Of a stretch of 64,000 nt of DNA, positions 3,439-64,000 are shown one piece after another. Below the pieces are notes generated by a model. That model ran no database searches. It was not told the DNA's origin and saw only the letters and a program-made list of their open reading frames with translations. Within the stretch, counting starts at the first letter, position 1. Every line of letters begins with the position of its first letter. The position numbers and the translations under genes are program-made. The stretch is from NCBI RefSeq assembly GCF_019649055.1, contig NW_026570264.1:124001-188000 (forward strand), written 5' to 3'. This DNA is from Paramacrobiotus metropolitanus. Lineage: Eukaryota > Tardigrada > Eutardigrada > Parachela > Macrobiotidae.

Positions 3439-3507
3439 ACGTAAAGCGACAGCGACTCGTAGTCCAGTATCGTCTAAAAGTGTCGTTCAATAAGCATTCA
3501 CTTCAGC

Positions 3508-6564: not shown

Positions 6565-7090
6565 TGCTGAAAGTATTGCGAACAGCGAAATAATACGCGA
6601 GATCCGCTCAGCTACTTGCTGACTTTATGACTAAATTCAACACTGAACAACACTGAGCGAGGTGCCCGATTCAGTCGCTCTCGCATGCGCCCTAAGCCGC
6701 GACAACAAATCACAAACAATGAACGGCTATGGCCGTCAACCAATCAGAAGAGACACAACACAGACACGTAATCCGGTGGCGTAGACTGGCGAGGGTGAAC
6801 GCCAGTGATCCAGTCGCTTACATGCCTCTGGCTGGATGCCGAGCTCCGTTGAGGCTCATCATACTCCGGAATCAACGAAAAGACGGCGGTCGCCGCTGTC
6901 TGTGTGTGCTCATATGCTAATAAAAACATCAGATTCTCTTAATCCGTTTTATCACATCAATTCCATAAGGCACAATTCCATTAACACGACGTGAATAAGA
7001 GACCTTTCTATAAAAATACTATCAAATCAAATCAACATAAAACAGATCAACAGAAGTTTTAATCAATGTATATTAGGATCCTCCATTTCT
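6565..7090. other. Intergenic stretch, nothing recognised
   Basis: Short overlapping frames on both strands with no domain. I see no clear repeats or RNA genes. Confidence 0.35.
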
Positions 7091-23444: not shown

Positions 23445-24295
23445 AAGACTTCATTGTTTTTTGCATTGCCAATGCTTACGCTAAATTATTTTACAAACCA
23501 AGCGCTGTGTTTCAAAAAAATTTGATGATATCACTTCGCCGTACCACGTTGTCCTGTACTTTTTCGTGCCACGATTTGCTATGAAATAAACTTTCTGAGC
23601 CGTCATAATATTTGCCTAACGATAGCAAGTACACGTAGAAAATCATTTTTCTTGTGAGCCGATGCGGGGAAATTTGTGTGACGATTGTTTGTTTTACGAA
23701 GTTATTCCGGGAGAGCATTCATTTTGATAAACATCGAAGAGATGCTGAAGCAGCGATCCCGGTTGTTCCACACCCTGAAATAACTTTGTTACTTGTGTTG
23801 CGGTGCAACTAAGGTCAGAACACCCTGATTGAATTCGCATAATAGGAAGACTAAAATGCTTTTGTTACTGTCAGGTGATAAGGTTTCGAGTCCAAGTGAG
23901 CTGCGCATGCAGCACAAGAATCACAGCCACACCTGTCACCCTTAATCATCTGTTTGTTCACCTGTCTAAAAGCAGAAACACGATATTTCGGCCATTTTAA
24001 TTTTTAATTAGAACTCCATAAGGCGCAACCTAACAGTAATCAGCATTCTCCAGTTTAATAACATGCGATTCGCTGCAATTATTTAATCAGCCATATTGTA
24101 TTCTGCGCACGTTATTATTAAGGTTTCATGACTGAACCCAAGTAGTCTGAACTTGTGATCCACGTAACAAAACATTGCAGTGCTGTCTTGATGTGTCATC
24201 GGATTTTCAGTTACAGGGTACTAAGAAGACCTTTACTGTCCTGAACGGTTTCGTCGAAAGTTTAGATCTACAGCTTTCTTCCGTATTGCTTAAGA
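23445..24295. other. Intergenic between GPCR array members 1 and 2
   Basis: AT-rich with short frames only. No extra GPCR remnant was seen. Confidence 0.4.
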
Positions 24296-27510: not shown

Positions 27511-27915
27511 GCCAGCTGCACGCTACTACCAGGAAAAACCCAGACATTTCATTATTTTTGAAGTAACACAATTTTATTGAAAACGATCTTGGATCTTTTG
27601 GATTTTGAACATTATCATTCCACTGTCAAGTAAGTCCATTCTTCTCTGATTACCGGCAATCTTTAATATGGTCCTGCAAATTGTATTGCCTGCGTTTAAA
27701 TCCATTCCTTTCTTTGTTTTTTTGTATTTTATTCTCCTATACCTTTATTGGCAATAGCCACCCAAATAGCAATAATTGCAAGCGCTGGTACACTACTTAA
27801 TAGTTAATTCTTCTTACTTTTCTTAATACGTGGACGTCTTATTACGTGTTCTTACTTACTTAATACGTATTCTTACGTCTTAATACGTGTTCTGAATCTT
27901 GTAATTTTATTTAGA

Positions 27916-29145
27916 ATGGACTCGATGAATATGCAGAGAAAAATGAATGCCGATGAGCCGGAATTCTTGTACAAGAAGAAAACCACATCAATCGAACCGG
28001 TCCGGCGTATGGAGCAGGAGCAGGGTTTCCAGCGGGAAGAGCGCTCCGACATGCACGGACGCTCTAGTCCCACCGAGACATACGTTCGCGAGGAAGCGTC
28101 GCCGGCAGACTGGCGCAACGGTACTCAGTTCGGCAGCCAATACGAGGACATTTTTCCGCGCGACAACCTCGACGCCCGTGCCGACCGGCTACTCATGAAC
28201 CAGAGAGACAACCAGAAAATTCAGGAAGAAGAGCGCTACACATCGCACCCCGTCGCCACCGAATGGCAGCAGCCGCTCGCCACGCCGACTGTGGTCACAC
28301 CGCTCTTGCAGCAGGAAGCGGTGGAGCAGCGCACCGACATCACGCAACTACCGCCCCAGATGGCTGAATTCGAGATGAACAAGCGCCGGCAACAGGAGCA
28401 GGATTATCCGGATGTTGGGGAAGACAGGCGCGGTGCGGACCAGGCGCTGCAGTCCGCGACAGAATCCTGCCAGGAAACTCAGCCCATCCGCTTGCGCCCG
28501 CTGTTTCACGTAATACGTGACCTTTGCCTCTGGCGCCGCGTCCTGGACTCGGCGGTGGTGTTCAGCGCGGGGTTGGGCTTGATGGCCGCCCTGTCCTACT
28601 TCAGCCTGATCAGTATCTTTGCCTATTTATCCCTGGGCACCCTCATCATCAGCGGGGCTAGCGTTATCGGCCGGCAGATTTTGTATACGCTGCAACAGCG
28701 TCCCGGCGTCGCGCATCCCTTCCAGCGTATCATGCAACGCGACACCGTACTGGATGCGGAATATGTACACGAGCAGATGGACGCCGTGCTGCAGCCGCTG
28801 AACCGGAAGTTGGTGGCCCTGCGCAACCTGTATTTGGTGGACAGTGTGGGGCAGACGCTGAAGATGATACTGTTTATGTACGCCCTGACCTATGTCGGCC
28901 ACTACTTCACCCTGACGAGTCTGCTAATGGTGGGCTGGGTGCTGGCGTTCACCCTGCCCAAACTGTACATGATGTTCCGGCCGCAGTTGGACCGAATGTG
29001 GAATAGTGCCCGCCGACTGCAGATGGGCATTGGCGAGAAGTTCCAACAGCAGAAACAACGCGCACAACAGCGCCGCGATGACATGCAGTCCGTTGATAAG
29101 AAGGTCACCTTCGAGAAGACTGAGAAGACCGAGAAAATCCAGTAA
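27916..29145 (+). CDS. Reticulon-domain protein (409 aa)
   Basis: A single-exon frame with an N-terminal disordered region (1-195, rich in Glu, Gln and Arg) and a C-terminal reticulon homology domain from about 201 to 375. The domain reads DLCLWRRVLDSAVVFSAGLG, then the first long hydrophobic hairpin (about 213-250), a hydrophilic loop beginning HPFQRIM (RTN loops start HPF), LRNLYLVDS like the RTN LRRLFLV-x-D, and the second hairpin ALTYVGHYFTLTSLL (about 314-352). Reticulons are ER membrane proteins that bend tubules. The tail is charged and does not end in a KKxx signal. Animals usually have introns inside the RHD, so the intronless domain is notable and may mean a retro-copy or lineage intron loss. 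The start is the first Met of a long open frame, preceded by an in-frame stop. Confidence 0.9.
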   Translation: MDSMNMQRKMNADEPEFLYKKKTTSIEPVRRMEQEQGFQREERSDMHGRSSPTETYVREEASPADWRNGTQFGSQYEDIFPRDNLDARADRLLMNQRDNQKIQEEERYTSHPVATEWQQPLATPTVVTPLLQQEAVEQRTDITQLPPQMAEFEMNKRRQQEQDYPDVGEDRRGADQALQSATESCQETQPIRLRPLFHVIRDLCLWRRVLDSAVVFSAGLGLMAALSYFSLISIFAYLSLGTLIISGASVIGRQILYTLQQRPGVAHPFQRIMQRDTVLDAEYVHEQMDAVLQPLNRKLVALRNLYLVDSVGQTLKMILFMYALTYVGHYFTLTSLLMVGWVLAFTLPKLYMMFRPQLDRMWNSARRLQMGIGEKFQQQKQRAQQRRDDMQSVDKKVTFEKTEKTEKIQ

Positions 29146-37168: not shown

Positions 37169-38274
37169 GGTATTGCCGTTTAAACGTTCGGTAATTGTAC
37201 GCCGTCGTTAATTCTGTCGTCAATCGCACCCCTTCGTCGATACCGCAGCCTGCTTAATAAGCTATCTTTAACATCCGGACTTGTGTTCAAGGAAAATTGA
37301 TAGCAGACGTTTGCCCAATGTACATGAGTAGCTTTTACACTAAGCGTTTGCCAGCTGATCAATGACACCCCTTGAATGTTTTACGTTTTGTATATTCTGC
37401 GTGAGAAGGTGGCATGTTACGCTCTACCAGCTTGGATGAATTACGTTAATGGATCGTGGGGGCGTTTTATTAACGAACAACTAAACGTAACCCAGAATTA
37501 TGTATTTTGTTTCATTCAGCGAACGATGATTCTACCCGGTCAGTTGGTACTTGCTAGAGTGGGTCCGGCTCTAATCGCTGTAAGCGGTTAGGAATAGGAT
37601 GAAACGCCCTGCTTCGCTGTACAGATATAATGCCAACATTGCGAATACGACATTCTGCGCGCGAGCTTGCATGGTGAATATCCCGCGCACGCCGAACGCT
37701 TTTTCGCTTCTATGTCACTTTGCTTCACTGTAATCTACTTGTTTATCACGTGAGTATATAGGTCCTTTTTTGCATCCCATAAATGTTATCGTACTGCTCC
37801 AGCTCAGGTAGTAATTTCAGTTCTGCGGCGTCTTGAAAAACGTGATAACCGCTTGGAGCTTTGTATTTAATTCTACCACTTCGAATCCAGCTCTGAGAAT
37901 CCAAATATGTGAATATAATTACTTAATTCCTCGCAACGCTTCAGTAACGCCGTGTTATTAAAACTGCAGACGTGTTGGAATATTCCATGCTACATTTCAT
38001 GCGAGGGCTAAGATTTACGCTAGCGATCAATTAATCATGTAAATTCTTCCGCCTCGTCGACGAGCAAGCAAGTAACCTTCGACGCTTACAACTGCCGTTG
38101 CGGGACGCCGGGAGTATTTCGATGCTAAATTTGCTCCACAAAAAGCTTACCTTCCGCCATATCCGTTGATATTTCCAGTCAGCAATATCTCTTTTCTCCA
38201 TTATCAATAAATAACTACGTTAGATTCGTGAGGTAAATCAGGGCTGTATATCTTGATTTTCCCTGGAAAAAGCC
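37169..38274. other. Upstream flank of GPCR array member 3
   Basis: No gene recognised. Frames at 37180-37368 (minus) and 37376-37591 are short and featureless. Confidence 0.35.
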
Positions 38275-39239
38275 ATGGAGCACCCAAACATCACAAACTT
38301 TAGTGACACGACAATCAACGGCAACATCACCGACGAATCCATCGTAACGCTACGCCATTCAGCTGCCGGTTGGACCATCCTGGTGACCCTTAAACTGCTC
38401 ATCTCGGTGGTTTCCGTTCTTCTCAACTCCGCCGTTCTGCTCATCCACTATTTCATTCCGGTCTATGTAAATCCGTTCAGCGTGTACCTGTTGGCGCTGT
38501 ACTTAGCCAACCTCTTCTACATCCTCACCTCGCGTCCCATGGAGATCCTCGACGAGCTCTTCGGCCTCTACCCCAACGCCGGCTATCCCGTTTGCATGCT
38601 GTATCTCTACCAAAAGGTCAGCAGCATCGTCCCGATTCTTTTCCACGTTCTCATCTCCCTCAACCGTGTATGGGCCATGACCTTTCCCGTCTCCTACCGC
38701 GAACGCCACACGCGTCGCCTGGCGGTATTCATCTGCATCGGTACCGTTGCTTACGTCCATCTTCTCAATTTACCTCCGTATTTAATCGACGTGCTCCACT
38801 TTTATCCATCGGTATTTGGCAAGTACCACGACTGCGGTCATCTGTCTACTAATTCGATGGATTTCCCAAAAGTGGATGAAATCATCAACCGGATTCTGCC
38901 GACACTGATTGTATTAGTTTGTTATATCTTCATCATCGTGAAACGGAGGAGTAATCGGATCAGTGCGAGCCGGTGTTCGACACGTACGAAACATGAGGAT
39001 TACTCGCAGCAACCGGGTCCGCTACGGCGCTCCGTCAAGCCGTTCGTTATCGTCAGCGTGACGTCAATTAGTCTCCTAATTTGTTATCTACCGGTCCAAG
39101 TTATTTTCTTTCTGGGGCTATTTTTCGCATAAGTTTGCCAAGAAACGTCTACAGCGCCGTGACCACGTTGTATTCTATGCAAATGATTGTCGACCCGCTC
39201 ATGTGGATGTGCAGTCTGCGTCCCACCAGGAAGCCATAA
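38275..39239 (+). pseudogene. Divergent GPCR, array member 3, frameshifted before TM7
   Basis: The frame is intact from MEHPNITNF through TM6 (ICYLPVQVIFFLGLFF). A one-base loss in the TTTTTC run near 39120-39127 then gives a premature TAA at 39130-39132. In the +1 frame the missing part continues cleanly as RISLPRNVYSAVTTLYSMQM and IVDPLMWMCSL, to a TAA at 39237-39239, closely matching 43543 and 47205. So the lesion is a single indel and the rest is conserved. It is either a very young pseudogene or a homopolymer sequencing error. As elsewhere in the family, NRV replaces DRY (LNRVWAMTFP), and TM6 has CYLP in place of CWxP. Truncation as read would remove TM7. Confidence 0.8.
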
Positions 39240-41632: not shown

Positions 41633-43542
41633 TATGGCCGTTTTCCAAACTTTTTTTTACGTCTCAGTTGTCAACGTTTAACGAAAGGTAAGAAAAAGAA
41701 GACTGCACAAAAGATTTGCCTACGCGCAACATTTGCCGATTTCGCTGACAGTAGCGGCAGTTTGCAGTTCAGAATTCGTACATGCGTTTTTCTGAATGTT
41801 GAAGCTGTTAAAATATTTGCCTCAGTCCGTGGCGTCTCATATAGCCCATGCGTAGGTCGGATTGTTATTCTTCCAAAAACTGGAACAACGTTATTTTTCT
41901 TTATCACATTTGTCGTTTCAATTTTCCTACCAATCTTCGTCGTGACTAGTTGGCTTGAAAATAACCAGCGCATGAGCACTGGTAACGTAAGAGGGTTTGC
42001 GCACTGGGCCCCAGCATGCAGTCCATTGGGTGCAGTTTGTTTCTCGCGTATTTAATGACCAACCAAGTAGCAAAATTAAAACGTGCGGCTGGCGCCGCTT
42101 AATCGGCCCTGGAGAAATTCATGTCCGATCTAAGTAACCGATTCCAAAGCTATTTCGAACATTTTGGCGCATCAGAAACTCGGAAAAAATGTGATGGGCA
42201 AAATTTGTACTCTGTAGTAAACTTTTAATTGTTTTGCACATTTCAACTGTATGGTCAATTGTCAGTAAATAATTGCTGTTTGCTACTTCTAAACAGCACT
42301 GACTCAAAGCAAGTGTGTGCAGTAATTTCCGTCGCCTGTTACTTGAACTTCGCTCCGCGCTGTTTTGTACAAGATATTCTTGACTCTAATTTTCGAAAGC
42401 TGATAAGCATAAAGTAATGAAGAACGCTGAACAGGTAAAGCCGTTCTTCTCTTGAGACCAGCTACAGAGTACAGTGCCCAAAATAAAAGCCACATGCTGA
42501 TTTTCTAAAGAAAAACGGTCTTATTTATTCCGTTAGTTTCCTTGAACGCTGCAAACCAAGGTTTCTGCTTTATCAGCTGGCCGTTAATACCCTCGGAACT
42601 TTTGGGAACGCGTTTGCGGAGATGTTCCGTTCCGTTGGAAGGAAGCTACGGGACCCGATAGGAGATTCTCGTTCATTGCCTTTCTGAGACAGCAGTGAAG
42701 TCTGGCTGTGGGTAGGGGTAACGCGGCCGTTGTTCTTGGTGCGCTGAATACAAAACGCGAGGTCGAATAAGTGGGAGAGCTCTAATGATTTTGGGTGTTT
42801 TTTTAACATTTAGATATGCATCATTTTTCGTAGTGTGACCGCGAAGACTATTTTTGTTACGTGACTATTGCCTGATAAACAGATACAGCTTTCTGCTGAT
42901 AAATGTTTTATATTAAATCTGTGATCGACGAAGTCGGGGACTGAAATCTCGTCGCGAAACGCTTAGTCGGCCATTTTCCGGTTGTGCACATCTGTAAACA
43001 TTTCGTCACGTGGCTGCTAGATGGTTCCCTGACGCTTTTGTGGTTTATGAGCGAGAAAATAGTAAGAAATTACACTGATGATCGAAATACTCGTATTATC
43101 TTAATTCAAAACCGTTGTTTCCAGACCAGCATGGCAGTTCGGTACAATTATCGCGACACACCCAGAACGAAATCCGGTCTCATTCGCATTTAAACGAATG
43201 CGTATCCGCACATCTCTTTCATGCACATCATCTTCATCGCGCGTATCCGCACATCTCTTCCTGTCCCCAGCAAGATCGCATGTCTTGTGTGAGCTGCAGT
43301 TAATACTCCGTTAATCACAGTTTAAAGAAGCTTACCACGTACTTGCAAGGCTAACCGGTAATTAAAATTACAGAGGCACGGCAATCATCATGGAGATCCA
43401 GTGACAATTTACACATAACGCAACGGTATCCATGCACTGGCGTCCAGTACGCAGTTTTTGACGGAACAATTATTCTTTCGACATCAGACCACGAACGTCA
43501 AGAGGGATTCTATACACTGTGTATTTCGTTAACGATCGAATC
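41633..43542. other. Intergenic or intronic stretch before array member 4
   Basis: Apart from the possible downstream exon at about 42560-42690, I see only short frames. CGTATCCGCACATCTCTT occurs twice at 43201-43260 (a 45-bp direct duplication). Confidence 0.35.
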
Positions 43543-44520
43543 ATGGCATACCCAAACACCACGATCTTTAATGCCACCATCCATAACGTCACCAACCTCG
43601 ATTCCTCCGTCATAACGCTGCGCCATTCGGCCGCCGGATGGACAGCATCGGTGACCATCAAACTCCTCATCTCCGTGGTCTCCGTGCTTCTCAACTCCTC
43701 CGTACTCCTCATCCACTACTTCGTTCCTGCCTATATTAATCCGTTTAGCGTGTACCTGTTGGCGCTGTATCTTGCTAACATCTTCTACATCCTCACCTCG
43801 CGTCCCATGGAGATCCTCGACGAACTCTACGGCCTCTATCCGGCCGCTGGCTACCCACTGTGCATGTTATACCTCTACCAGAAGGTCAGCAGCATCGTTC
43901 CGGTCCTGTTTCACGTCCTCATCTCTCTTAACCGGGTGTGGGCCGTGACCTTTCCCGTCTCATACCGGCAACGCCACACCCGTCGCTTAGCGGTGTACAT
44001 CTGCCTTGGTACCGTCGCCTACGTCCACTTCCTCAACTTGCCACCGTATTTAGTCGACACCCTCAAATATTACCCACCGGTCTATGCAAAATACCACGAC
44101 TGCGGGCACGTCTCCGTAAATTTTCTGGATTTCCCCCGTGTGGACGAAATTATTAATCGTCTTCTACCGACATTTATTGTACTGACGACATACATCTTCA
44201 TCATTGTAAAGCGCTGGAAACGGAAGGCCGGAAATCAGGTCAGTGCGAGCAAATCGCTAACACGCACCACACAAGAGCAGTCGCTGAAGACGTTGGAAAC
44301 GTCACGCCGCTCGGTGAAGCCGTTTATCGTCGTCAGCGTGACGACAGCCAGTGTGCTGATATGCTATGTGCCGGTACAGATTGTCTTCTTCCTGGTGTTG
44401 TTTTTCCGCATGAATCTGCCGGGGAGCGTGTACAGTGCCGTGACCACGCTATACTCACTGGAGATGATCGTGGATCCGCTCATGTGGATGTGCAGTCTGC
44501 ACCGCACTAAGAAGCCATAG
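43543..44520 (+). CDS. Divergent rhodopsin-class GPCR, array member 4, intronless (325 aa)
   Basis: The start at 43543 (MAYPNTTIFN) is preferred over an in-frame ATG at 43519 because it aligns with MDHPNIT and MEHPNIT of the neighbours. N-glycosylation sites (NTT, NAT, NVT) lie in the N-terminus. TM1/TM2 are followed by TSRPMEILDELYGLYP. TM3 has LCMLYLYQKVSSIVPVLFHV and ends LNRVWAVTFP (NRV instead of DRY). The loop-2 cysteine is in DCGHVSV. Loop 3 is basic (KRWKRKAGNQ). TM6 has CYVPVQ in place of CWxP. TM7 reads SLEMIVDPLMWMCSL, lacking NPxxY. Very close in sequence to 38275 and 47205, so a recent tandem duplication. Seven-pass plasma-membrane receptor, ligand unknown. Confidence 0.9.
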   Translation: MAYPNTTIFNATIHNVTNLDSSVITLRHSAAGWTASVTIKLLISVVSVLLNSSVLLIHYFVPAYINPFSVYLLALYLANIFYILTSRPMEILDELYGLYPAAGYPLCMLYLYQKVSSIVPVLFHVLISLNRVWAVTFPVSYRQRHTRRLAVYICLGTVAYVHFLNLPPYLVDTLKYYPPVYAKYHDCGHVSVNFLDFPRVDEIINRLLPTFIVLTTYIFIIVKRWKRKAGNQVSASKSLTRTTQEQSLKTLETSRRSVKPFIVVSVTTASVLICYVPVQIVFFLVLFFRMNLPGSVYSAVTTLYSLEMIVDPLMWMCSLHRTKKP

Positions 44521-46427: not shown

Positions 46428-47204
46428 TAATATTTATAACTCTTTTTCTCTGGTGTCATAAAAGAGATGCTATTAGCGTGTAAAACTAATCAATGACGTT
46501 ATACGTGTACTCCGTCTGTGATTATGGCCACCGGCGATGACGGAATGGGCTGGGATGATACGGCATTTACAAATAGCCTAGCGTAGTCAATACGCCAGAG
46601 TGCAGGTGTTTATTGGGATCGAACGGTAAAAGCCTCAAACAATATAACCGCTATGTAATTACGATATGCAGCTTTCTCTAATATCCAGACACGATCCTGT
46701 AATTTTTCCGAAAGAGAGACACACACTCTGAGATTTCATCCTCCACCGCCGAATCAGCCCAGTAATTGGTACGATATTGTTCTTATGGTAATTGCGTCAC
46801 ATGAGTGTTATTGTGATGGTATTAAGCTTATTATTCCCGTCGCGCACGATACCAGTTTCGTGGCTATTCCGGATAAAAAGCGGCACTTTTCTCGGATTTC
46901 CAATTTGTTAGCGGGAAAACGTGGCTACTTTGGTTCGCTTAACGCAGGCAATCAACTTGATAATCCCTTGGAGATCCTATTGACGAAATCCTACTGCACG
47001 GCATGTTACTTATACCGGCAGTTAATTATCAGTTAACCATGCTTCCCCCGGCTGACGAGGGCGATGAAGCCAGTAATTAACATACCATAGTCACGAGACA
47101 TCAACACCATCAAGACAATTGTTCCCGTTACCGGATCCCTGCATTATTTTGTTCAGATTCGGCCCGTGCATACGACGACAAATTTATTTATCTTTTGACC
47201 AATC
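46428..47204. other. Upstream flank of array member 5
   Basis: No gene recognised. The plus frame at 46785-47036 (83 codons) has no domain. Confidence 0.35.
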
Positions 47205-48200
47205 ATGGACCATCCGAACATCACGCTTTTAAATTCCAGCACACACAACACCACAGCGACTGATTCCTCCGTCTTAACGTTGCGCAACTCGGCTGCCGGA
47301 TGGACCGCATTAGTGACCCTTAAACTCCTCATCTCCGTGGTCTCCGTTCTCCTCAACTCCGCCGTTCTACTCATCCACTACTTCATTCCTGCCTATATAA
47401 ATCCGTTCAGCGTGTACCTGTTGGCGCTGTATTTAGCCAATCTCTTCTACATCCTTACCTCGCGTCCCATGGAGATCCTGGACGAGCTCTACGGCCTCTA
47501 CCCAAACGCCGGCTACCCCGTGTGCATGCTATACTTATACCAAAAGGTCAGCAGCATCGTCCCGGTCCTCTTTCACGTCCTCATCTCTCTTAACCGGGTA
47601 TGGGCCGTGACCTTTCCCGTCTCTTACCGCGAGCGCCACACCCGTCGCTTGGCAGTGTTCATCTGCCTCGGTATTGTCGCCTACGTCCATATTCTCAATT
47701 TACCGCCGTACTTAATCGACGCGATCAAATACTATCCGGCGGTGTTTGCAAAATATCACGATTGCGGCCACATTTCCACGAATTCGCTGGATTTTCCCAA
47801 AGCGGATGAAATCATTAACCGACTGTTGCCGACGTGTATTGTACTGGTTAGCTACGTGTTCATTATCGTGAAACGCTGGAAGAGGAAAACACCCCGCAGC
47901 AACCAGGTCAGCACCAGCCGTTCAACACGGACGGCACAGGAGATGTACGCTTGGCAGCCGGCGCGTAAGATGTTTAACCGGCCTCGCCGGGCGGTTAAGC
48001 CGTTTGTCGTCGTCAGTGTGACGACAATCAGTGTTCTGATTTGTTATTTGCCGGTGCAAGTCATCTTCTTTCTTAGCCTGTTTTATCGCATCAATCCACC
48101 GAGGAACGTCTACAGTGCGGTGACTACGCTGTATTCATTGGAGATGATAGTGGATCCGTTAATGTGGATTTGTAGTTTGCGTCGCATACGAAAGCCATAA
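47205..48200 (+). CDS. Divergent rhodopsin-class GPCR, array member 5, intronless (331 aa)
   Basis: A full-length frame, MDHPNITLLN..., with N-glycosylation sites (NIT, NSS, NTT) and seven hydrophobic segments. TM2 reads VYLLALYLANLFYILTSRPM. TM3 contains VCMLYLYQKVSSIVPVLFHV and ends LNRVWAVTFP. The loop-2 cysteine is in DCGHIST. Loop 3 is Ser/Thr/Arg-rich (KRWKRKTPRSNQ). TM6 is SVLICYLPVQVIFFL without the usual Trp. TM7 SLEMIVDPLMWICSL lacks NPxxY. It is the last member of the array, about 2.7 kb after 43543 and in the same orientation. The missing DRY and NPxxY suggest altered activation or a decoy role, which is inference. The frame is intact. Confidence 0.9.
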   Translation: MDHPNITLLNSSTHNTTATDSSVLTLRNSAAGWTALVTLKLLISVVSVLLNSAVLLIHYFIPAYINPFSVYLLALYLANLFYILTSRPMEILDELYGLYPNAGYPVCMLYLYQKVSSIVPVLFHVLISLNRVWAVTFPVSYRERHTRRLAVFICLGIVAYVHILNLPPYLIDAIKYYPAVFAKYHDCGHISTNSLDFPKADEIINRLLPTCIVLVSYVFIIVKRWKRKTPRSNQVSTSRSTRTAQEMYAWQPARKMFNRPRRAVKPFVVVSVTTISVLICYLPVQVIFFLSLFYRINPPRNVYSAVTTLYSLEMIVDPLMWICSLRRIRKP

Positions 48201-48974: not shown

Positions 48975-51294
48975 ATGACGAACGGGGCGATGCTGATTTT
49001 ATTCACCATGGGATTATTCCCGGCCGCGCTGGCTTATTATCAGCGCTACAAATCTTACGGTAAACCAAATATGTCAAAATATCTATGTTTACTTTATAAT
49101 CTGCTAAAATTGTTTTTCATTTATATAGTTGCCTGTTTTATTTTTCACAGTATCTTTTAATATTAATTTTTTTATTATTTATGCTCCATTTATATTATTT
49201 CATTAATATTTTTGTCGTTTTTTTAATTTTGTTTATTTTCTTTTATATTTTTAGCTAGATTAAAGCATTTTAGAAGTACTTTCCTTATATTTCAATAATT
49301 TTTATATTCCGCGTTTGTTTCTTCAGTTATTATTTGTGTATTATTTAGTTTAGGTATCTAAAGTTTTTTCATCATCTATCATTTTTATTTTTTTTTGTTT
49401 GGTTGCATTTATTCGATAGTAAATTACGGATTCTGAAGCTTTTTTTATTAAACAGGCACCGGCGACACGATCATAGCGACGGGATACCTAGGTGGCGGTT
49501 CCGTCGATGAGTACCAGCGGTGGCTGATTGAGTGTAACGATGGAGAAGGCATGACCGGTACAACTGCAGTTACAATTTAATTTTCCCTAATTAAACTCAC
49601 TCTTCAGAATCTTTGTCGGTATGCGGAGTTTTGTTGCAGGAATTTTTGCTGCTGCTTTGATGCCGTTTTATGGAATCTCCCGTAAGTGTACTCCCTCCCG
49701 ACTCCCAGAGGGAATGCTAACGGTACATCATGTCTTTGCTTGCAGAAGTCTGGTGTAACTTTTTATTCCCAAGGAAACCGCCATCCGCCGGCATCTATCC
49801 GTATTATCCATCTTGTAATGTCCGGTAAGATTGTGTCACCACCAGCGTATTTTTTGGTAATGGTCAAGGAAAGGAAATTATCGCCGATATTTTGCAGGAA
49901 TATGAGCGTACACGAGCTGTACTGCTACGATAAAGTGTGGCCGCGAGACACCGCCGATACCTTCGTCACCGGTACGTCATTTCACAAATTTTACGCGAAT
50001 TGTTTTGGATATACTGTATATGTATTAAAGCAAAACGCTACTCTTTTTCGCTTCAGTGAATTTAATTTGAGACCTTACTGTATCATTTTATACCATAACA
50101 GGATTTGTTTTTGGCAGTCTTCCTCTTTTTCTCACATTTTTATTTGTCAACGTTTACAAATTTTACATATTTCTTTAAGCAGTAAATTTAATATTCTATT
50201 ATACTAATCGGCGAATTGCCGGAATACGCAATGTTTTCTTCCCGAATTTAGGTTTATATTCTTCGGTCAACTACGATCCGGTAAGCCCGACACTGTTCAA
50301 ATGCTGTAAGTTCAAGCTGGCAGTAAACCTGTCCCAGAAATTGTACTACGTGCGGTAGTTGAAAACTGTCATTTTTTTCTGAAGGCAAAACTCCAACAGG
50401 ATACAAGCTGGATTACAACAGATGCCAATGGAAATACACTCACGACAAGTATGAGCATATTGACTGTAGTGTAAAAAGTACACTGACTGCAGATTAAATT
50501 TATTTAATTCTCAGCTTATATCTCTAATGTTTACCGATAGAAGTACAGTATATATCGGTACACCTATACGAGTTCTATTAACTTCATACTTCAATAGGAT
50601 GGGTGAGCATTATGATGGATACTGGATCACCAAATGCGATACAAATAACGTGATGACAGGTACACGATACAGTGGGCAATATGGTGCCTAGAACACTTGC
50701 ATCGGAAATTTTGTTGTCGTCATAGATAGAATTTTTAAAATATTTTAGTTTTTGAGTTAGAGCTGTTTCTGATTTCTTTACTCATTGGATCGGAACGATT
50801 CAAAACATTTGAACTTTTGATGTTAGCTTCTTATACAATGTTTATCCCGCACTATTACCCCGTAAAAAATGGTAGAAAATTTTAATATGACCAGTAACCA
50901 GAGACTTTGTGAGGAGCACTGCGAAAGACACGCAGTTTCCCAGTGCAGCAGGTCATCACTATATCGGCTCCTAAATCCAATAATAACATTACAGTACATT
51001 ACAAACCTTACAACTTTAATCTTTAATTTGAAAGCTGACTTAATAGCCACCCGAAAAGGACGTGCGATGTATATTGAATAGTAAGATGCATGTATGATGT
51101 CATTCTTTAGGAATTGGATGGGCGAAGAGTCCCTGGGACGACCAGTTCCATTACACATGGATTCAGGTACGTATCACCTCTTTTCTCCCTTGTTTTGTTA
51201 TGATCAGCCCTTTGGTGACTGGTGTGGTTTGCAGTGTTGCCCGGTGGTGTATTTACCCGGCGTACAAGTGCTTAGCGCCAGCCAGCTATTCTAA
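48975..51294 (+). CDS. Secreted ten-cysteine protein, dermatopontin-like, paralogue A (225 aa, ten exons)
   Basis: Exons are 48975-49059, 49456-49557, 49640-49681, 49746-49824, 49898-49971, 50252-50305, 50385-50448, 50598-50659, 51111-51166 and 51235-51294. All are GT-AG and the phases close to 225 codons plus stop. A signal peptide (MTNGAMLILFTMGLFPAALA) precedes YYQRYKSYG. Three similar modules follow. Each is a Trp or Tyr next to a Cys, an M/V-T-G turn, and a later aromatic-rich strand ending in Cys or Cys-Cys: RWLIECNDGEGMTG...VWCNFLF; ELYCYDKVWP...FVTGLYSS...LFKCC; YDGYWITKCDTNNVMTG...FHYTWIQCCP. The W-x-x-x-C and CC spacing resembles dermatopontin (DERM) repeats. Ten cysteines suggest five disulfides and an extracellular-matrix or secreted role. 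Family assignment is inference. An AATAAA lies near 51488. Confidence 0.7.
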
Positions 51295-52040
51295 CTGGCC
51301 CATCTCCATCGGATCTGGCGAAAACCAACTTGAAGGGAAAACAACTCTGACAACTACAAAAACAATTTCGTTAATCATTGTTTTGTTTCTTGTTATTGGC
51401 TGATACCTACCGTGACCTTTACTGCCGCTACCCGGTTAATGATCTCTATGTTACTAATGTTCATTACTTGACGCTCGTTAGTCGTTTTAATAAAAGTCAT
51501 GACTGACAAACGTATCACTTCCGATATACCGGTATAATTGTCAGGTGGACAACAGCATCAGTGTAATGAAAATTGACTTGTCTGTCTTGCGTCCGTTTAT
51601 TTCATTTGTACGGATTTTTTGCGATCCAAAGGCAGCTTAAAAAAACACATGCACATTTACAAAGCACAGAGATTGACGTGCCTCTTTCTAAAATATTGAT
51701 AGCAACGATAGTACACTGTGTGCATCGAGCATGTAACCGTTTAATCTCCGATCTGGCGACTATTTTCTGCACATCGCGGACGTAATTTTGCCCCACGCGT
51801 GATCTATTGAAACAGGGTCATTACCCAAGGTGTCAGTCATCAGATTCTCACGCTGTAGACGGGGTTACGTTTTGCTGTGTACGTACTCCGCTGTAAATCA
51901 CGTTACAGCGCCATCCACATGGTTATACTCCTCAAAGCAGAATTAGGCGATAACTAGAGCTTCTTTAAATTTTTTGTTAACTTTCCTAGAAAATATTACA
52001 TTTCTGGTGGACGTTGTTTTTAATTAGCGCGCATGCCGAG

Positions 52041-53849
52041 ATGAAGTCCGGTCTCGATAATTCCTTCTTTTTGGCACTGATATCTATTTTATTTGGGACG
52101 GTCGTGGGATATTACAGCCATTATAAATCGTTTGGTATGTCTTAACGGAAATATTTAGCTTTTATAAGCAAGTACTGCAAAAAAATTTTATGGCGAATAT
52201 ACTGTCTGGATGGTTTAAAAATAAATTGTTTATTATCCACTGTCTGTTTTCTTACGATATAGGATTCTAGTACTCGTACAAAGCAACTAAAATGATGTTT
52301 CCAATAGTGCGATGTTTGGGTACAGGTTCTGGAGATACGATAATAACGGCCAGCTACATGGGTGGCGGTTTTGTCGACGACTACCATCGATGGTTAATTG
52401 AGTGCAATGACGGAGAAGGCATGATCGGCATCTATGACACGAGCAAACAGTTTACCGGCATCTCGCGTACGTCCCATCGCGGCATCCGGAATAACCTTCT
52501 TCCTCATTGCACTTTTATATTGTCAACGCTTTTCATTTTGCAGAGGTCTGGTGCTACTTTCTCTTTCCCAAGAAACCTCCATCGGCTGGGATCTATCCCT
52601 TTTATCCCAGCTGTCACGTTCGGCAAGAATAACAACTTTTTTTAAAAATACAAGCAGATAGCAATTATTGGTATCAGGGTACAACTTAATACTGTAACAC
52701 AATTGTTACGTTATAAGTACGGAAATATCGATTAGGCTCTTGTTATTACACTTTTGCAGGAATTTCTCATTGCACGAGTACTACTGCTACGAGAAGCTAT
52801 GGCCAGTGGATACTTCTGACACATTTGTCACCGGTAAGTATAAATACTTCCCCGGTGCTGTGCTTTATGTAGAGTAATATGTGGCCGGTGATCCGCGTTT
52901 CAGAATATGCTCTCTTTACTGACAATCATCAATCTCTTAGCCATTTTTTAAAAAAAAATTAACTGCATGATTGTGATTGCTGTGCAGGACTGTACTCACC
53001 GACGATCTACGATCCCGTCAATCCCAATTTGATGAAATGCTGTAGGTTGGACCGTAGTTACCATAGATCTTGCCAGCCCCACATGACAGCATTGCCATGT
53101 AACCAATACGTTACGTATGACACAGGCAAAACACCGCCAGGATACCGGCTCGACTATACGCGCTGCCAGTGGAAGTACACCCACGATAAGTACGCTTTCG
53201 TCACTTGTGTTTATTTTGCTATGAAATCAAAGCACAATGAGTAACGTTCCGCCCTTATAGAGCCGGTGAACACTACGACGGATACTGGGTGACCAAGTGC
53301 GATACCAACTTTGTTATGACCGGTAAATCTGTAATTTATCACAAACTTGAATATAAAATATTATTAAAAATTATAACAATTGTTAATCATAATAATTATG
53401 ATTATATAAATATTATAATAATTATTAATTAATAATTATTATATAAACCAATTATTAATTTGGTGCAGTTTTATGATACATCAGTGTGTGATAAGGGGGT
53501 AATTAAGTCACATTTAAGTGTACTTACTGTAATATTATTTACTACAACAAAATATTTCATAAATTCAATAAATGGATCCTACCAAAATTCCATAATTATG
53601 ATGATGTAGTCCATTACACTATTCTTTTATAAGTCTGACGCGCCCTATACCCTTTACACAGGCATGGGCATGGGAATGAATCCTTGGGAAAACCAACTGC
53701 ACTACACATTTATTCAAGTACGTAACAATGATTCCCTGTAATAATGAGAGATGCGATCGAAACTACTTTAGAAAACTGTGGTTTTATTGTAGTGTTGTCC
53801 GGTGATACATGATGGGCGCGTTGTGGATATGTCGCGGCAACTCCTGTGA
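52041..53849 (+). CDS. Secreted ten-cysteine protein, dermatopontin-like, paralogue B (226 aa, nine exons)
   Basis: Exons are 52041-52134, 52326-52466, 52544-52622, 52760-52833, 52988-53041, 53126-53189, 53261-53322, 53662-53717 and 53793-53849. The phases close to 226 codons. Exon lengths 79, 74, 54, 64, 62 and 56 are identical to paralogue A, showing duplication of the whole gene. The signal peptide (NSFFLALISILFGTVVG) is followed by YYSHYKSFG. It has the same three modules and ten cysteines (RWLIECNDGEGMIG; EYYCYEKLWP...LMKCC; YDGYWVTKCDTNFVMTG...FIQCCP). Two differences: the intron that splits exons 2 and 3 in A and C is absent here, and the intron after 52622 starts GCAAGA, a GC-AG intron, where A and C have GTAAGA and GTAAAC. 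An AATAAA lies near 54101. Confidence 0.7.
53338..53462. repeat. AT-only low-complexity tract in an intron of paralogue B
   Basis: Composed of AATTATTAAT and ATAATTAT words, with a few internal palindromes. Simple sequence in the intron between 53322 and 53662. Confidence 0.8.
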
Positions 53850-54357
53850 TTTTTCACCGGATAAAAGAATATTTCCACTGGCTTCCCGTTTTTTTTTGTT
53901 GCGTTTTTTGAGAAATCGTGGTTGTGTTGTAACGCAAAATAAAAAATTTAAGGCAATTGTTGACCCTTTAAAAATTGCCCTGTGTGCGTTGTTGCGATCT
54001 GTCCAAAGAAGCGCTCGACGATTGTATCATTCTTGATAATTAGCCAAAGATGACTGATGTGAATTAAGCGCCGGTACCGTTTTGTTAGCGTTGTTGCAGA
54101 CCAATAAAAGCGATGTATCTGTCACACTGTGCTGTAATCGAGCCGCGTCCATCAAACATGATCACTTTATACCAACCGGTCATTGACTACACATGTCAAG
54201 ACCGATTAGAATTTAAAAACATCTTTCTCATCCGCTGTATTATTCTGCCGGTCTTTTCAATCTCAACAACAACGGATATTGCCGAATAATTTCCAATCTT
54301 CGTCAATGGAAGTAACCGTTTAGAAGGTGAACGTCATTCGTTACTGTTAAACTCAAA

Positions 54358-56419
54358 ATGAACGGTCGGCGGATTAGCATGGACAAGATGGCGTGGAAGC
54401 TATTCGGGATTGTGGCAGCTGTTTGTCTGGGAGTATGTTATGGATACTATGAAGATATGCGTACATTCGGTAAGCCTAAATAATACAAAATATCACAGTT
54501 TTTGTCTGTGTAGTTTAACTGAAAGTAACTGAATGATAAGCACAATAATTATCGCAACGCTAGCTTTCGTTAACTGATTTCTCGTAAACTTCGATTTTTA
54601 TCGCATTATAAACGCTTTTCTTATATGGCTTCGCTTAATAAGCACCCGCTCGACAAATTCCCGCATAGTCCCTAGGAAAAATTATTTTCAGTAGCTTAAC
54701 CGAAAAATAAACATTACAAATTTTGATAAATTTTATTTTAGAATTAAGTATTTAAAATGCAGTAAAACACACGTTACCGTAAAAGAGTGTTTGAACAAAG
54801 ACATTTGCAGTTCAGTTGTTGACTTTCGTCGACTGTCGTGGTTTACGTAGTCGCGCGGTAGAGCGGCTGCTAATGCTGCAGCTGACTGAAGTAAAAAAAA
54901 ACTGTGCATTTCTGTCGGAGTTGTGTAAATGTTAATGTTGGAATAACAGGATCGGGGGATTCGATACTGACGATTCAGTACATGAGCGGCGGATTTATCG
55001 ACGAGTACCACCGATGGACATCCGAGTGTCAAGATGGCGAAGCGATGATCGGTGGGGATTCCTTAATTATTATTGCGGAAAATTCTTGTTGCATTTCTTC
55101 AGCGATTCTTCCTTATTCGTAGGGATCTATGATTCGTTTCGTCAGTTTATGGCCATCAACCGTAAGTTTAGCGCAGACAGCTTTTCTGGGACGCGACGTG
55201 CGCTGCAAGCATTTAGCTAAAGGGTTTTTGGGGAGAATATGTGGGAATACCATCTTTTAGACGAGCGCCACAGTTCACATTTCCACCGCATTTTCAACAC
55301 ATAATTTTCGACGCCGAATGGAGCTGGTTGAACAAATGTTTTTCTTTTAAATATTCTGCATTGCAGAAGTTTGGTGTTATTTCATGTTCCCCAAAAAGCC
55401 GCCGTCCAATGGAGTTTATCCATATTATTCCAGTTGCAATGTCCGGTAAACGAGATTTGTACGACATATGGAGTAAATTATGACGGCGGTACAGAAATAT
55501 TACATTGCGAGACATTGTTGCAGGAACATGAGCCAGTATGAATATTACTGTTACGACAAGTACTGGCCGGAAGACACATCCAACACATTTATCACCGGTT
55601 AGTCGCTTTAACGGCGAAGCAATTCAATTTTGTGGAAAAATTTCGGGTAATAGGCGTGCATACAGGTTGACGATGATTTAGGGTTATGGGGTCAAGCCGG
55701 TGGCTCAGGATTCCAGAATACGCCAACTGTGATGAAATGCTGTACGTTGGTGTACCGTACGCTGTAACTTCAGACATTATCAGCGCTATTAGGAATGAAA
55801 TAAACTATAATTTATAGCAGCATAACGGAAATTGTGATCGAGAGAAAATACTCTCTAAGTAAATTATTAATTTTAATAAAAAAATAGAAATGTATTGTAA
55901 AACGATGTGGTTGGCAGGCAAAGCGCCGAGTGGATATAAACTGGATTATAACCACTGCCAATGGAAGTACACGCATGACAAGTAAGACAAGACAATTATA
56001 CTGTTTGCAAAGAAATATCCCATCGCTATACGCGCTCATATTTTAGCATTTCTTTACATAATTTTATGCGTGAAATAAGTGATTTTATTTATTTTGCAGA
56101 ATGGGTGAACATTATGACGGAGTGTGGCTGGTAAAGTGCGATACAAATTACGTCATGACCGGTACGGTTACAACGCCTCCACTTAACAGGCAATCAGGAT
56201 ACGTATGAACGTTCGAATTCCATAATTATAATTATTTTTAGGAATGGGTCAGGCGATGAATCCCTGGGACGGTATTATACATTTTACTTGGATACAGGTA
56301 CAGATAAGCCGCGAGCTTCACAACTGCAAAGTACAAAGTTATGACCTTTTTTGCAGTGCTGCCCCGTGATTTACACCGATGATCATTCCGACAAACTGCA
56401 ACGATATCACCGCCGGTGA
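54358..56419 (+). CDS. Secreted ten-cysteine protein, dermatopontin-like, paralogue C (236 aa, ten exons)
   Basis: Exons are 54358-54469, 54950-55051, 55123-55161, 55367-55445, 55524-55597, 55682-55741, 55918-55981, 56100-56161, 56242-56297 and 56357-56419. The phases close to 236 codons. The N-terminus has an extra basic stretch (MNGRRISMDKM) before the signal hydrophobic core WKLFGIVAAVCLGVCYG, so an internal Met at 54379 or 54388 could be used. Modules: RWTSECQDGEAMIG...VWCYFMF; EYYCYDKYWP...FITGLWGQ...VMKCC; YDGVWLVKCDTNYVMTG...FTWIQCCPV. Exon 6 uses the acceptor at 55681. An earlier acceptor at 55665 would put a TGA in frame. The C-terminal tail is longer and charged (HSDKLQRYHRR). Same strand and order as A and B, with spacers of about 0.5-0.8 kb. 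Confidence 0.7.
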
Positions 56420-57064: not shown

Positions 57065-58445
57065 ATGCGCGTACGTCTGTTGACCGCTGCAGCGCTACTG
57101 GTCATTCCGCTGGCCGAGTGCGTGACGTACGTCTGGGATTTACTGAAGCCGCCGCTCAACGCGGTGCAGAGTCAAGCGGCTCTAGCCACTGCCCAACCGG
57201 GGCGGTCGTATCCGACGTACAGCTATATTCCGGCGACGAGTTTTCAGTGTGGTCAGGAGAAGCAGGCGGGATACTATGCTGACACGGAGACGGAATGCCA
57301 GGTGTTTCACCGGTAAATTTATCTTTCTGTTTGCGAAAATTATCCTGCACTAGTTCGCAACCTTTTTCCGCTGATATTATAGGTGCGACTTGGACGGGGT
57401 CATGACCAGTTATTTATGCCCGAATAAAACCATATTCAATCAAATCACATTGGTCTGTGATTTCTTCTACAATGTTGAATGTGCCAGGTAAAAAAATGTT
57501 CGGAAAGAAAAGGAACATTGCCTCAAAAACGAAAATGCTTCTTTCGTTATTTTAAATATACTCGTACTAAAAAATAAGCACATGTACCACATTTTTATAA
57601 TTTATTTATTTTTTATAATTTTTTATCTAGCATTTTTTTTATTTTACAAAATAAATTTCGTAACGTTCATGCAGTTTTATTTTATGATTTATTTTTCGAA
57701 GTGTTTATATTTTTATTGTTTTACTAATTCCTTAATTACCACCAAAATTTTTTATTTTGCTCGTAGAAGCTATACTATTTATTTTAATAATTTTATCGAT
57801 CTATTTCGGCGCGATCAATGCTTTCAAGTGCCGCATTATGCAACCACTATTGACAAGTTAAATTTACACCGGCGAGTGGCATACTCGACATTTTGGCTAA
57901 TTAATTTAAAACGCAGTGCAAACGATTTCCGGTCGACTGTTTACAGATCTTCAGAGTTTGTCGATTTTGCCAATTCCCGCTTATATTCCAACGGCCCGTT
58001 GTTCGAGTCGCCGCCCGCCGACTACATCCCGCCCACATCCGACGCTGACGCTGCCACCGCACTCAAGCAAATGCCGCCTAACACGCCTGCCACCCCCGCA
58101 AGGCGGCCGCCGCTTTCGCCGCCGCGGCAACCGACTTCTCGTCCGCCTGTGCGCCCGCCCGTGCGTGGCGGTGCGTCTACTGCGCCACCCCGTGGACCAG
58201 GTGGGCGACCGCCCGCAGGTGGCGTGTCGCGCGTGGTGACCACGACCGCATCCGGTCCGGAGGAGAACGTGATTGGCGGGCAGCGGCACTACAGTATGTG
58301 TCGGCTGTACGATCAGTTCAAGAACACGCTGTGTCTGGCCAAACCCGGCTTCAGTACGGACTCGTTCCAAGCGCTCAGGCAGACGAAGGCGAACACCACG
58401 GAGGGACCGGTCGAGCCTGACGCCACGGATCAATCCGAACATTAA
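57065..58445 (+). CDS. Secreted CBM14 (peritrophin-A) chitin-binding protein with Pro-rich tail (283 aa)
   Basis: Exons are 57065-57312, 57383-57487 and 57947-58445, GT-AG, with phases closing to 283 codons. The signal peptide is MRVRLLTAAALLVIPLAEC. A single type-2 chitin-binding domain spans about residues 60-118 with the six-cysteine spacing FQC ... EC-x5-C ... LC-x12-C-x7-C and the aromatic residues usual for the family (CDFFYNVEC). This is followed by FVDFANSRLYSNGP, a conserved linker in arthropod cuticle CBM14 proteins. Then comes a proline/arginine-rich low-complexity region (about 150-225) and a C-terminal block with RHYSMCRLYDQFKNTLCL. The third intron is within the 57488-57946 AT-rich tract, and a long open frame extends into it but is intronic by homology. 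It likely acts in the cuticle or extracellular matrix. An AATAAA overlaps the 3' end just after the stop. Confidence 0.85.
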
Positions 58446-62500: not shown

Positions 62501-63387
62501 ATTTCGATGAAGCCCTCATGTACGTCGCCTTGCGGCTGATCGTATCATTTTTCCAACATTTTACAGCCAAGGAAATTTCTCTTGCTAGACAATTATTTTT
62601 TGATGTTACACTTTCCTGCTTATTATGGCAAAATTGTTGTAAAATCATTCAGGTTTCTTCTCATTACATAATGCCAATTTAATTGCCGACGGCTTTGTAT
62701 ATATTGATCGGGTTGAAAAGGAATGCGTAGAATTGTTAGCAGAATAATTTGTTTTTACACAAAGGCTTTTTAGTTTAAATGTTGCGGCAGCTTCAATTCC
62801 CAGTGACGAGAAAGATTGTGCGACAGTTTTTGCCATAACATGAAAATCAAAATCGTGTGTTTTCATATTAGGTTTTTACTATTTCAAAACGTTCGTTTTC
62901 TGTTTAGTAATTTTTATGCCAGGTTTTTTATTTTAATATTTAAATTGATTTTTTTGGAAAGAGCTTTTCTTTCAGAACCTTTGCCGCAAGTTAGTCGTTT
63001 AAGTTTATGCCGAGTGGATTGAAATTATGTGCAATGAATTCTGCATTTTAAATTTTAAAAAATTCTACAGTAATTTTTGATGAATAAATTGCAGGAAAGC
63101 CATTCGGAAGCTGGAGTTCACGCAGCCGACGCCCATCCAGGCGCAGGCCATCCCGGCGGTCCTCCAAGGCCGCGACGTGATCGGCATCGCCAAGACGGGC
63201 AGCGGCAAGACCGCCGCCTATCTCTGGCCCCTGCTGATGCACGTCATGGACCAGCCGCCCCTCCGTCCGGGCGACGGACCTATCGGTTTAATCTTGGCGC
63301 CCACCCGCGAGCTGGCCCAGCAGATCTACAACGAAGTCCGCAAATTCGGCACCAAAGTCTACAATCTCACCACCACCTGCATCGCCG
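59525..63387 (+). CDS. DDX42: DDX42-type DEAD-box RNA helicase, 5' part (391 codons, continues past the window)
   Basis: Exons are 59525-59648, 59707-59851, 59909-60059, 61167-61526, 62419-62519 and 63095-63387, all GT-AG with closing phases. The last donor at 63388 leads into an intron that runs out of the window. The N-terminus is a Gly/Arg-rich tail. Landmarks of the SF3b-associated helicase DDX42 follow: an acidic [11 protein letters not shown] block, [75 protein letters not shown]. The helicase core then begins with the Q motif (FTQPTPIQ, about 302-309), motif I AKTGSGKT (about 326-333) and motif Ia PTRELAQQI (about 363-371). DEAD, SAT and later motifs lie beyond the window. It is a nuclear ATP-dependent RNA helicase in pre-mRNA splicing. 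GC-rich coding exons contrast with AT-rich introns. Confidence 0.93.
60540..60960. repeat. Degenerate short tandem repeats in DDX42 intron 3
   Basis: TGTAAAATTAAATCCAGTAA and similar words (CTGTAAAATTAGATCTG, CTGTAAAATTAATTATCTG) recur many times with poor periodicity. Low-complexity intronic sequence. Confidence 0.6.
62365..62406. repeat. ATA/AAT microsatellite before DDX42 exon 5
   Basis: A run of AATAATATAATAATAAT units ends 12 bp before the exon-5 acceptor. Simple trinucleotide-type repeat. Confidence 0.85.
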
Positions 63388-64000
63388 GTCAGTTTATTCG
63401 AATTTTTTTGTTTATTTTATGTGCGAAAACTTCGGTAGAAATCGGAATAAATTCGGTAGAAATCTGGCTGATCGTGTTCACATTTCCTCTGATATTTAAA
63501 TTAAAAAATGAGAATATTCGTCCAAGTGGAAATAACTTAGATATTCTGTAATGGAGACGTGGCATGGATAAAGTGACGATGCGCGTAGTGTGTGGGCGTG
63601 CCTGTTATTATGATGTGTTGTTTGTAATCGCTGCCGAAAATTATGCATTACGTATTGCAAAACTAAATTAACCCGGCATTTTCATAATTGGATATTTAAA
63701 AATTATTTTTGAATGTTTGTTGGCTTTTTATTGTTATTTACAGGCATTGTTTTTTCTGTATAGTTAATAAAAAAAACCGTTGAAACTGCGTTTAGTCGAT
63801 GGAACAGCGGCTTCTGTGCTATCGGGTGAATTTAAAACGATTAAAAATTCACTTGTTTTTTGTAACTCAATATTTTTGTTACTTTTATTTATATTTACGA
63901 ATTCTTTATTTCTGTCGAACGAATTTAGACAAAAGAAATTTAGATTTTTTTTTATTTTTTGTTTTTGAATTTTTTTATCTTTTTGAGTTTCTTTTTTCTG
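63388..64000 (+). other. DDX42 intron, cut by the window end
   Basis: Starts GTCAGT and is AT- and T-rich. No acceptor with a continuing DDX42 frame is visible, so the next exon lies outside the window. Confidence 0.7.

What the first reader, a model, noticed from the sequence alone, without database searches (positions are those of the whole stretch)
48975..56419. Three intact tandem genes for a ten-cysteine secreted protein family, possibly dermatopontin-like
Splice-by-splice reconstruction gives three complete genes (225, 226 and 236 aa) with signal peptides, identical exon phases and mostly identical exon lengths (79, 74, 54 or 60, 64, 62, 56 nt). All ten cysteines and three W/Y-x-C ... 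TG ... CC modules are kept. None of the genes contains a long ORF, so ORF-based annotation would miss the whole family. The W-x-x-x-C and CC pattern resembles dermatopontin repeats, but the sequence is divergent enough that it could be a new family.
Basis: partly seen in the sequence, partly recalled or inferred. Interest (0 to 1): 0.85.

Follow-up and report, generated by a model that had tools for sequence, protein, structure and literature searches.

The report
Large secreted ten-cysteine animal gene family
Three neighbouring, intron-rich genes encode secreted-looking proteins with ten fixed cysteines; they belong to a family of about fifty genes in this (probably tardigrade) genome that the domain libraries tried here do not recognise, with a weak, unproven resemblance to the matrix protein dermatopontin.

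Summary
The three genes (48975-51294, 52041-53849, 54358-56419; 225, 226, 236 aa) have consistent splice sites, shared phases, signal-like N-termini and purifying selection. They belong to a family of about 54 loci on 20 contigs (hand count). I modelled 44 genes; ten cysteines are invariant in the 40 kept. B and C each have a closer relative on another contig, so they are not recent tandem copies.

"Dermatopontin-like" is only partly supported. None of the members tested matches Pfam DERM, and the DR-x-W signature is absent from the modules. Whole-profile comparison is weak (1 to 9 of 100 shuffles as good). A DERM single-repeat profile finds two proposed modules in register better than nearly all shuffles in clade 2, but the window genes' own clade scores low. 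A phase-1 intron in the corresponding glycine codon supports an internal three-fold repeat.

Best reading: a lineage-expanded family of secreted, disulfide-locked, probably glycosylated proteins of three DERM-like modules acting in the extracellular matrix. The function is inferred; no expression or structure data.

The parts
48975..51294 (+). Gene A, 10 exons, 225 aa, ten mature cysteines
48975..49059 (+). A exon 1: signal-like N-terminus
49456..49557 (+). A exon 2: module 1, first half (ends in the Gly codon of TG)
49640..49681 (+). A exon 3: module 1, second half; most divergent and least certain exon of A
49746..49824 (+). A exon 4: end of module 1 and linker with Cys3
49898..49971 (+). 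A exon 5: sequon NMS and module 2, first half
50252..50305 (+). A exon 6: module 2, second half, into the CC pair
50385..50448 (+). A exon 7: linker 2 with Cys7
50598..50659 (+). A exon 8: module 3, first half (CDTNNVMTG)
51111..51166 (+). A exon 9: module 3, second half
51235..51294 (+). A exon 10: final CC and tail, stop
52041..53849 (+). Gene B, 9 exons, 226 aa; intron 3 has a GC donor after 52622
52041..52134 (+). B exon 1: signal-like N-terminus
52326..52466 (+). B exon 2: module 1 in one exon (102+39 joined)
52544..52622 (+). B exon 3: end of module 1 and linker with Cys3
52760..52833 (+). B exon 4: sequon NFS and module 2, first half
52988..53041 (+). B exon 5: module 2, second half
53126..53189 (+). 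B exon 6: linker 2 with Cys7
53261..53322 (+). B exon 7: module 3, first half (CDTNFVMTG)
53662..53717 (+). B exon 8: module 3, second half
53793..53849 (+). B exon 9: final CC and tail, stop
54358..56419 (+). Gene C, 10 exons, 236 aa (start codon uncertain between 54358, 54379 and 54388)
54358..54469 (+). C exon 1: signal-like N-terminus
54950..55051 (+). C exon 2: module 1, first half
55123..55161 (+). C exon 3: module 1, second half
55367..55445 (+). C exon 4: end of module 1 and linker with Cys3
55524..55597 (+). C exon 5: sequon NMS and module 2, first half
55682..55741 (+). C exon 6: module 2, second half (60 nt)
55918..55981 (+). C exon 7: linker 2 with Cys7
56100..56161 (+). C exon 8: module 3, first half (CDTNYVMTG)
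56242..56297 (+). C exon 9: module 3, second half
56357..56419 (+). C exon 10: final CC and tail, stop

Best explanation
Three functional genes of a large, lineage-expanded family of small secreted proteins. Each mature protein is built of three modules with the plan aromatic-x(2-3)-C ... T-G ... C or CC, joined by two linkers that each carry one cysteine. Inferred pairing: each module closes its own loop (Cys1-2, Cys4-5 or 4-6, Cys8-9 or 8-10), and linker cysteines 3 and 7 tie to the spare cysteine of each CC. Inferred fold: three dermatopontin(DERM)-like beta modules, as a diverged sister of DERM or a family that works like it. Inferred role: a soluble, often N-glycosylated, disulfide-locked protein of body cavity, cuticle or basement matrix that binds matrix polymers or surface glycans through variable loops on a fixed scaffold; the expansion would diversify binding or tissue of use. 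Shown here: consistent gene models, purifying selection, family size, invariant cysteines, support for an internal repeat. Not shown: secretion, pairing, fold, ligand, expression.
For: Consistent splice models with shared phases. Near-random fourfold sites but conserved positions 1+2. About 54 loci. Ten cysteines plus 20 further columns invariant in 40 of 40 kept models. Hydrophobic N-terminus in the three window genes (weakest in A). A sequon at one column in 29 of 40. Phase-1 intron in the corresponding Gly (Ala in 8) codon of module 1 (14 of 40), module 2 (36 of 40) and module 3 (16 of 18 in clade 1). M1-M3 profile match: 0 of 60 shuffles as good. DERM repeat profile: in clade 2 the three best places are module 3 over its full length, module 1, and seven columns of module 2; best score reached by 1 of 150 full and 0 of 150 cysteine-keeping shuffles, sum of the two best by 0 of 300.
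Against: No Pfam DERM match for the window genes, the 21 members of A2 or four consensus pieces. Whole-profile comparison with DERM is weak: 1 and 3 of 100 shuffles as good for clade 2, 3 and 9 of 100 for all rows; hhalign probability at most 2%, against 73% for human against bacterial DERM. The repeat hit itself has probability 8%. With all 39 rows the repeat test loosens to 7 and 5 of 150; clade 1 alone, which holds the window genes, scores 12.9, its third place is not module 2, and it was not tested against shuffles. M2 matches the other modules poorly. In module 1 the intron lies at column 50 or 52 in 14 other rows, and clade 2 has no listed intron at the module 3 glycine. DR-x-W is absent from the modules. 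Twenty invariant non-cysteine positions, several charged, are more than a plain scaffold needs. The models were guided by family profiles, which favours kept cysteines.
Confidence: 0.45

Rival explanations
1. A secreted cysteine-rich family unrelated to DERM: a fold of its own whose three cysteine loops arose by internal duplication and resemble DERM by convergence. Function again extracellular binding or matrix.
For: No convincing Pfam, NCBIfam or PDB relative; weak whole-profile match; no DR-x-W in the modules; no DERM match over the cut-off in this genome (an exon-split DERM gene could be missed).
Confidence: 0.4
2. A secreted enzyme or metal-binding protein: the invariant E46, D49, D172, D188, E192 and near-invariant H187, D195 (alignment columns) form a functional site.
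For: These polar residues are invariant or kept in 38 of 40 rows, although the two clades are only 35-51% identical to each other.
Against: No enzyme family match worth following; the residues lie in module 1, linker 2 and module 3 and could equally be structural or calcium-binding.
Confidence: 0.1
3. Artefact: pseudogenes or an over-fitted splice reconstruction.
For: The models rest on DNA alone, no RNA; A exon 3 is divergent; B uses a GC donor; four relatives look incomplete or broken (L005, L014, L031, L033); one region was first modelled as a chimera of two genes.
Against: Purifying selection; the same cysteine plan in 40 kept models; shuffled stretches score 27-43 against 228 or more.
Confidence: 0.02

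Closest known systems
Dermatopontin / DERM (Pfam PF14704)
   Same: About 200 residues, ten cysteines in the human protein, three repeats of aromatic-x-C...G...C; first six cysteines in the same order with CC at 5-6 (typed human sequence). Secreted (recalled). A snail dermatopontin is N-glycosylated (PMC3374290, passages and a reference title seen).
   Different: No HMM match; no DR-x-W in the modules; in module 3 a first cysteine and a CC where the human protein has one cysteine at the end; longer linkers; extra conserved blocks (WCxFxFPxKPP...YPYYxxC, THDxxxExYD); about 54 loci.
Tardigrade secretory abundant heat-soluble (SAHS) proteins
   Same: A secreted, tardigrade-specific, multi-member family (start of abstracts and passages seen).
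   Different: Recalled: SAHS are lipocalin-like and not cysteine-rich. No alignment was made.

Membership tests
DERM / dermatopontin (PF14704) | Score above the family's curated cut-off | tested here: not met
   No DERM match for A, B, C, the 21 members of A2 (18 relatives, one of them a chimera of two genes, and the 3 window genes), 4 consensus pieces; control human dermatopontin 145.1 bits
DERM / dermatopontin (PF14704) | DR-x-W signature in each repeat (feature recalled; present three times in the typed human sequence) | tested here: not met
   1 of 40 models has any DR-x-[WF], and it lies at the start of module 2, not before a closing cysteine
DERM / dermatopontin (PF14704) | Three tandem repeats with intra-repeat cysteines | tested here: inconclusive
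   Intron-in-Gly pattern and M1-M3 match support repeats; match to the DERM repeat profile beyond most shuffles in clade 2 but weak for the whole domain and for clade 1
DERM / dermatopontin (PF14704) | Five disulfides in the DERM pairing | not testable with these tools
   Ten cysteines invariant in 40 of 40 kept models; pairing unknown
DERM / dermatopontin (PF14704) | Signal peptide, extracellular | tested here: inconclusive
   Hydrophobic N-terminus in A, B, C; 27 of 43 models pass a crude test, several of the rest lacking exon 1; no dedicated predictor run
DERM / dermatopontin (PF14704) | DERM fold | not testable with these tools

The most novel reading that the evidence does not exclude
A previously undescribed animal secreted-protein family, expanded to about 54 loci in two clades in this genome, in which a DERM-like module was triplicated within the gene (same intron in each module) and rebuilt with new fixed cysteines and an optional sixth disulfide (C-[FY]-G-[ST]-G-D-C), giving a diversified extracellular binding repertoire.
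Probability: 0.3. Interest if true: 0.65.

Novelty: new variant of a known kind. Interest (0 to 1): 0.45.

Why it matters
About fifty secreted-looking, cysteine-locked genes without a Pfam match in the members tested are a sizeable unexplained part of this animal's secretome. If the organism is a tardigrade (inferred), the family is a natural candidate for cuticle, body-cavity or immune functions. The alignment (30 invariant columns, two clades) gives a ready profile for testing other panarthropod genomes, and would show whether DERM-type modules reached this lineage in disguise or a new fold arose.

Tried and rejected
Direct membership in DERM: not upheld by the Pfam tests.

A DERM gene elsewhere in the genome: the only PF14704 candidate at E up to 10 (C5:2923314-2923496, E 0.146, below the cut-off) reads like a CCP/sushi module by eye (motif recalled) and does not fit the family (scores 50 and 58). 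The bacterial DERM protein found nothing (the tool warns that an empty answer shows nothing here). Introns could hide a DERM gene.

Relatives outside this genome: none in viral contigs (57 pattern matches, none confirmed) or phages (with the chimeric query). Plasmids and genome contigs were not searched with the family; both genome-contig scans went to DERM. No other animal genome was on hand, so absence elsewhere is untested.

DERM sequences for a better profile: found only in Pseudoalteromonas. Of 369 genomes of that class 1 is over the cut-off, the centre itself, and one more matches at E 8.8e-4 with 11 stops. The DERM profile rests on one typed human and two near-identical bacterial sequences.

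PDB: gene B alone none; the profile of A, B, C two Ras-like chains at E 0.42 and 0.54, taken as chance; the 21-row profile none. Pfam on the 21 members: RcnB E 0.0014, DUF2101 0.11, DUF2712 0.32, DUF1541 5.1, one member each, taken as chance. NCBIfam: two families, one member each, E 0.15 and 0.18, taken as chance.

Model errors found: L035 was first modelled as one gene but is two neighbours. The chimera is, is row 5 of A2, is in the profiles, and was the query. Two models replaced it. A2 holds 21 of the 39 models. Four models were dropped before the 39- and 40-row counts: L005 and L014 (incomplete), L031 (stop in the model), L033 (garbled first part). L003 has a 5-kb intron and may be two genes. 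Shuffle tests were not run for clade 1; module and repeat borders were set by eye.
Full report
What is there. The region 48975-56419 holds three genes on the + strand (exon ends, lengths and phases: A and B, C). A has 10 exons and 225 aa, B 9 exons and 226 aa, C 10 exons and 236 aa. The introns are GT-AG except B's third, which is GC-AG. B has the 102- and 39-nt exons of C as one 141-nt exon. A profile-guided spliced aligner, built from the same three proteins, returned A and B exactly and C without its first 8 residues. Mature identity is 58-69%, and dS could not be computed, as expected for saturation. Fourfold sites agree in 19 of 54, 16 of 40 and 14 of 43, positions 1+2 in 68-77%, and no intron of one gene matches an intron of another: old duplicates under purifying selection.

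The family. The genome holds 169.8 Mb in 533 contigs. Searches with B and C (E up to 10) and with a distant relative, a chimera of two neighbouring genes (E up to 0.1), reported 166, 166 and 159 exon matches, from 150 scored of 176, 183 and 164 candidates; the lists were cut and include the window genes. Grouping the listed matches by eye gives about 54 loci with two or more exons on 20 contigs, and three single-exon places. One pair (C428 and C13 near 1824 kb) has nearly equal scores throughout and may be two alleles. I took 40 regions. All 40 gave spliced models scoring 228 to 735, against 27 to 43 for 12 shuffled stretches. With one region split in two and the three window genes this makes 44 models; 10 of the 54 loci were not modelled. 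Four models were dropped as incomplete or broken, leaving 40.

In the 40, ten cysteines and 20 other columns are invariant. Identity is 41-86% in clade 1 (18 rows), 47-78% in clade 2 (22 rows) and 35-51% between them. An N-terminal motif C-[FY]-G-[ST]-G-D-C carries two more cysteines: both in 9 rows, neither in 23; in 8 rows the first position is missing (6 without and 2 with the second cysteine). No row has one kept and the other replaced. This suggests an optional sixth disulfide. A sequon at one column is kept in 29 of 40 and is in A, B and C.

The tree puts C beside L006 (support 100/100) and B beside L007 (98/89), both on contig C70 nearly 400 kb apart, with A next to the B pair (100/89). 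The window trio is thus not a fresh tandem triplication.

Three modules. A phase-1 intron splits the codon of the glycine that ends the T-G (or I/V-G) of each module: column 55 in module 1 (7 of 18 in clade 1, 7 of 22 in clade 2), column 126 in module 2 (16 of 18 and 20 of 22; Ala in 8), column 214 in module 3 (16 of 18 in clade 1, not listed for clade 2). Against a perfect pattern: in module 1 ten rows have the phase-1 intron at column 50 and four at column 52, and B has none there. Module profiles: M1 against M3 is reached by 0 of 60 shuffles, M2-M3 by 5 of 60, M1-M2 by 9 of 60. Together this favours an internal three-fold repeat, with module 2 the weakest.

Dermatopontin? Pfam gives no family for A and B or C with the limit at E 10. 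Among the 21 members of A2 (18 relatives, 3 window genes) four families each match one member, none of them DERM; four consensus pieces match nothing. A bacterial DERM protein was found in Pseudoalteromonas (119.1 bits, cut-off 28.3). Human against bacterial DERM scores 36.2 with probability 73%; this family against the three-sequence DERM alignment scores 18.5 (all rows), 15.8 (clade 1) and 20.4 (clade 2) with probability at most 2%. Column shuffles of DERM do as well in 1 and 3 of 100 (clade 2) and 3 and 9 of 100 (all rows).

A profile of six single DERM repeats, which I cut after seeing the sequences, has its top three places in clade 2 at module 3 (full length, score 19.9, probability 8%), module 1 (16.1) and module 2 (11.4, seven columns). 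Shuffles reach the best score in 1 of 150 and 0 of 150, and the sum of the two best in 0 of 300. For all rows together it is 7 and 5 of 150 for the best, and 3 and 1 of 150 for the sum. Clade 1 alone, to which the window genes belong, scores 12.9 at module 1 and 9.6 at module 3, with its third place outside module 2, and was not tested against shuffles. So a DERM relation is plausible but not shown, and rests on clade 2. The DR-x-W signature is absent from the modules.

Function. The evidence shows a secreted-looking, constrained, cysteine-rich, expanded family; it does not show a function. Dermatopontin is said to regulate collagen and fibronectin fibril formation (PMC7230369, start of the abstract seen in the listing) and occurs in snail and limpet shell matrix (PMC3374290, passages seen). 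By analogy I infer an extracellular matrix or binding role. The invariant charged residues leave room for metal binding or catalysis.

Organism. The genome size, 169.8 Mb, fits the 170 Mbp reported for Paramacrobiotus metropolitanus (PMC11191345, passages seen). That is inference.

Literature. Searches for dermatopontin with tardigrade (one paper, on a snail), with horseshoe crab and agglutination (none), with Limulus (four), with invertebrate and cysteine (17), with disulfide and repeat (47, 12 listed), for Paramacrobiotus metropolitanus genome papers (14), for tardigrade secreted cysteine-rich tandem families (one mite paper) and tardigrade family expansions (none) showed no title or abstract start describing this family. 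Only two of these papers were opened, and only for passages.

Noticed in passing
window 24266-25318, 38257-39129, 43462-44517, 47199-48197 (+): Four rhodopsin-type 7TM receptor genes upstream of the three genes (7tm_1, E 7.4e-16 to 9e-19), each largely one open frame; frames at 21789-22265 and 22653-23444 look related by eye (not run through Pfam).
   Followed up: partly
window 57065-57487 (+): Directly downstream, the first two exons of a secreted-looking gene with a chitin-binding CBM_14 domain (E 7e-11 for the piece spliced by eye; exon 1 alone gives none).
   Followed up: partly
window 27808-29142 (+): Single open frame with a reticulon domain (E 1.2e-26).
   Followed up: no
window 63084-63548 (+): Open frame with the start of a DEAD-box helicase domain (E 9.5e-24).
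   Followed up: no
window 2830-3486 and 5935-6624 (-): Two open frames sharing RPDG...PWKNG...WDVT that look like the end of a mobile-element polyprotein (recalled); no Pfam match at E 0.01.
   Followed up: no
L041 507-1298 (Pseudoalteromonas plasmid NZ_CP022523.1): A bacterial DERM protein, 119.1 bits to PF14704, not listed in the plasmid gene table; close copies in two Pseudoalteromonas genomes; in 369 genomes of the class only the centre genome is over the cut-off.
   Followed up: partly
L005, L031, L033: Family members that look decayed or mis-modelled (no terminal exon found, stop in module 2, garbled first module), which may mean gene turnover.
   Followed up: no
clade 1 relatives, alignment columns 14 and 20: Two extra N-terminal cysteines occur together or not at all where both positions can be read (9 both, 23 neither); an attempt to find the missing first exon of L019 and L020 gave no candidate.
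   Followed up: yes
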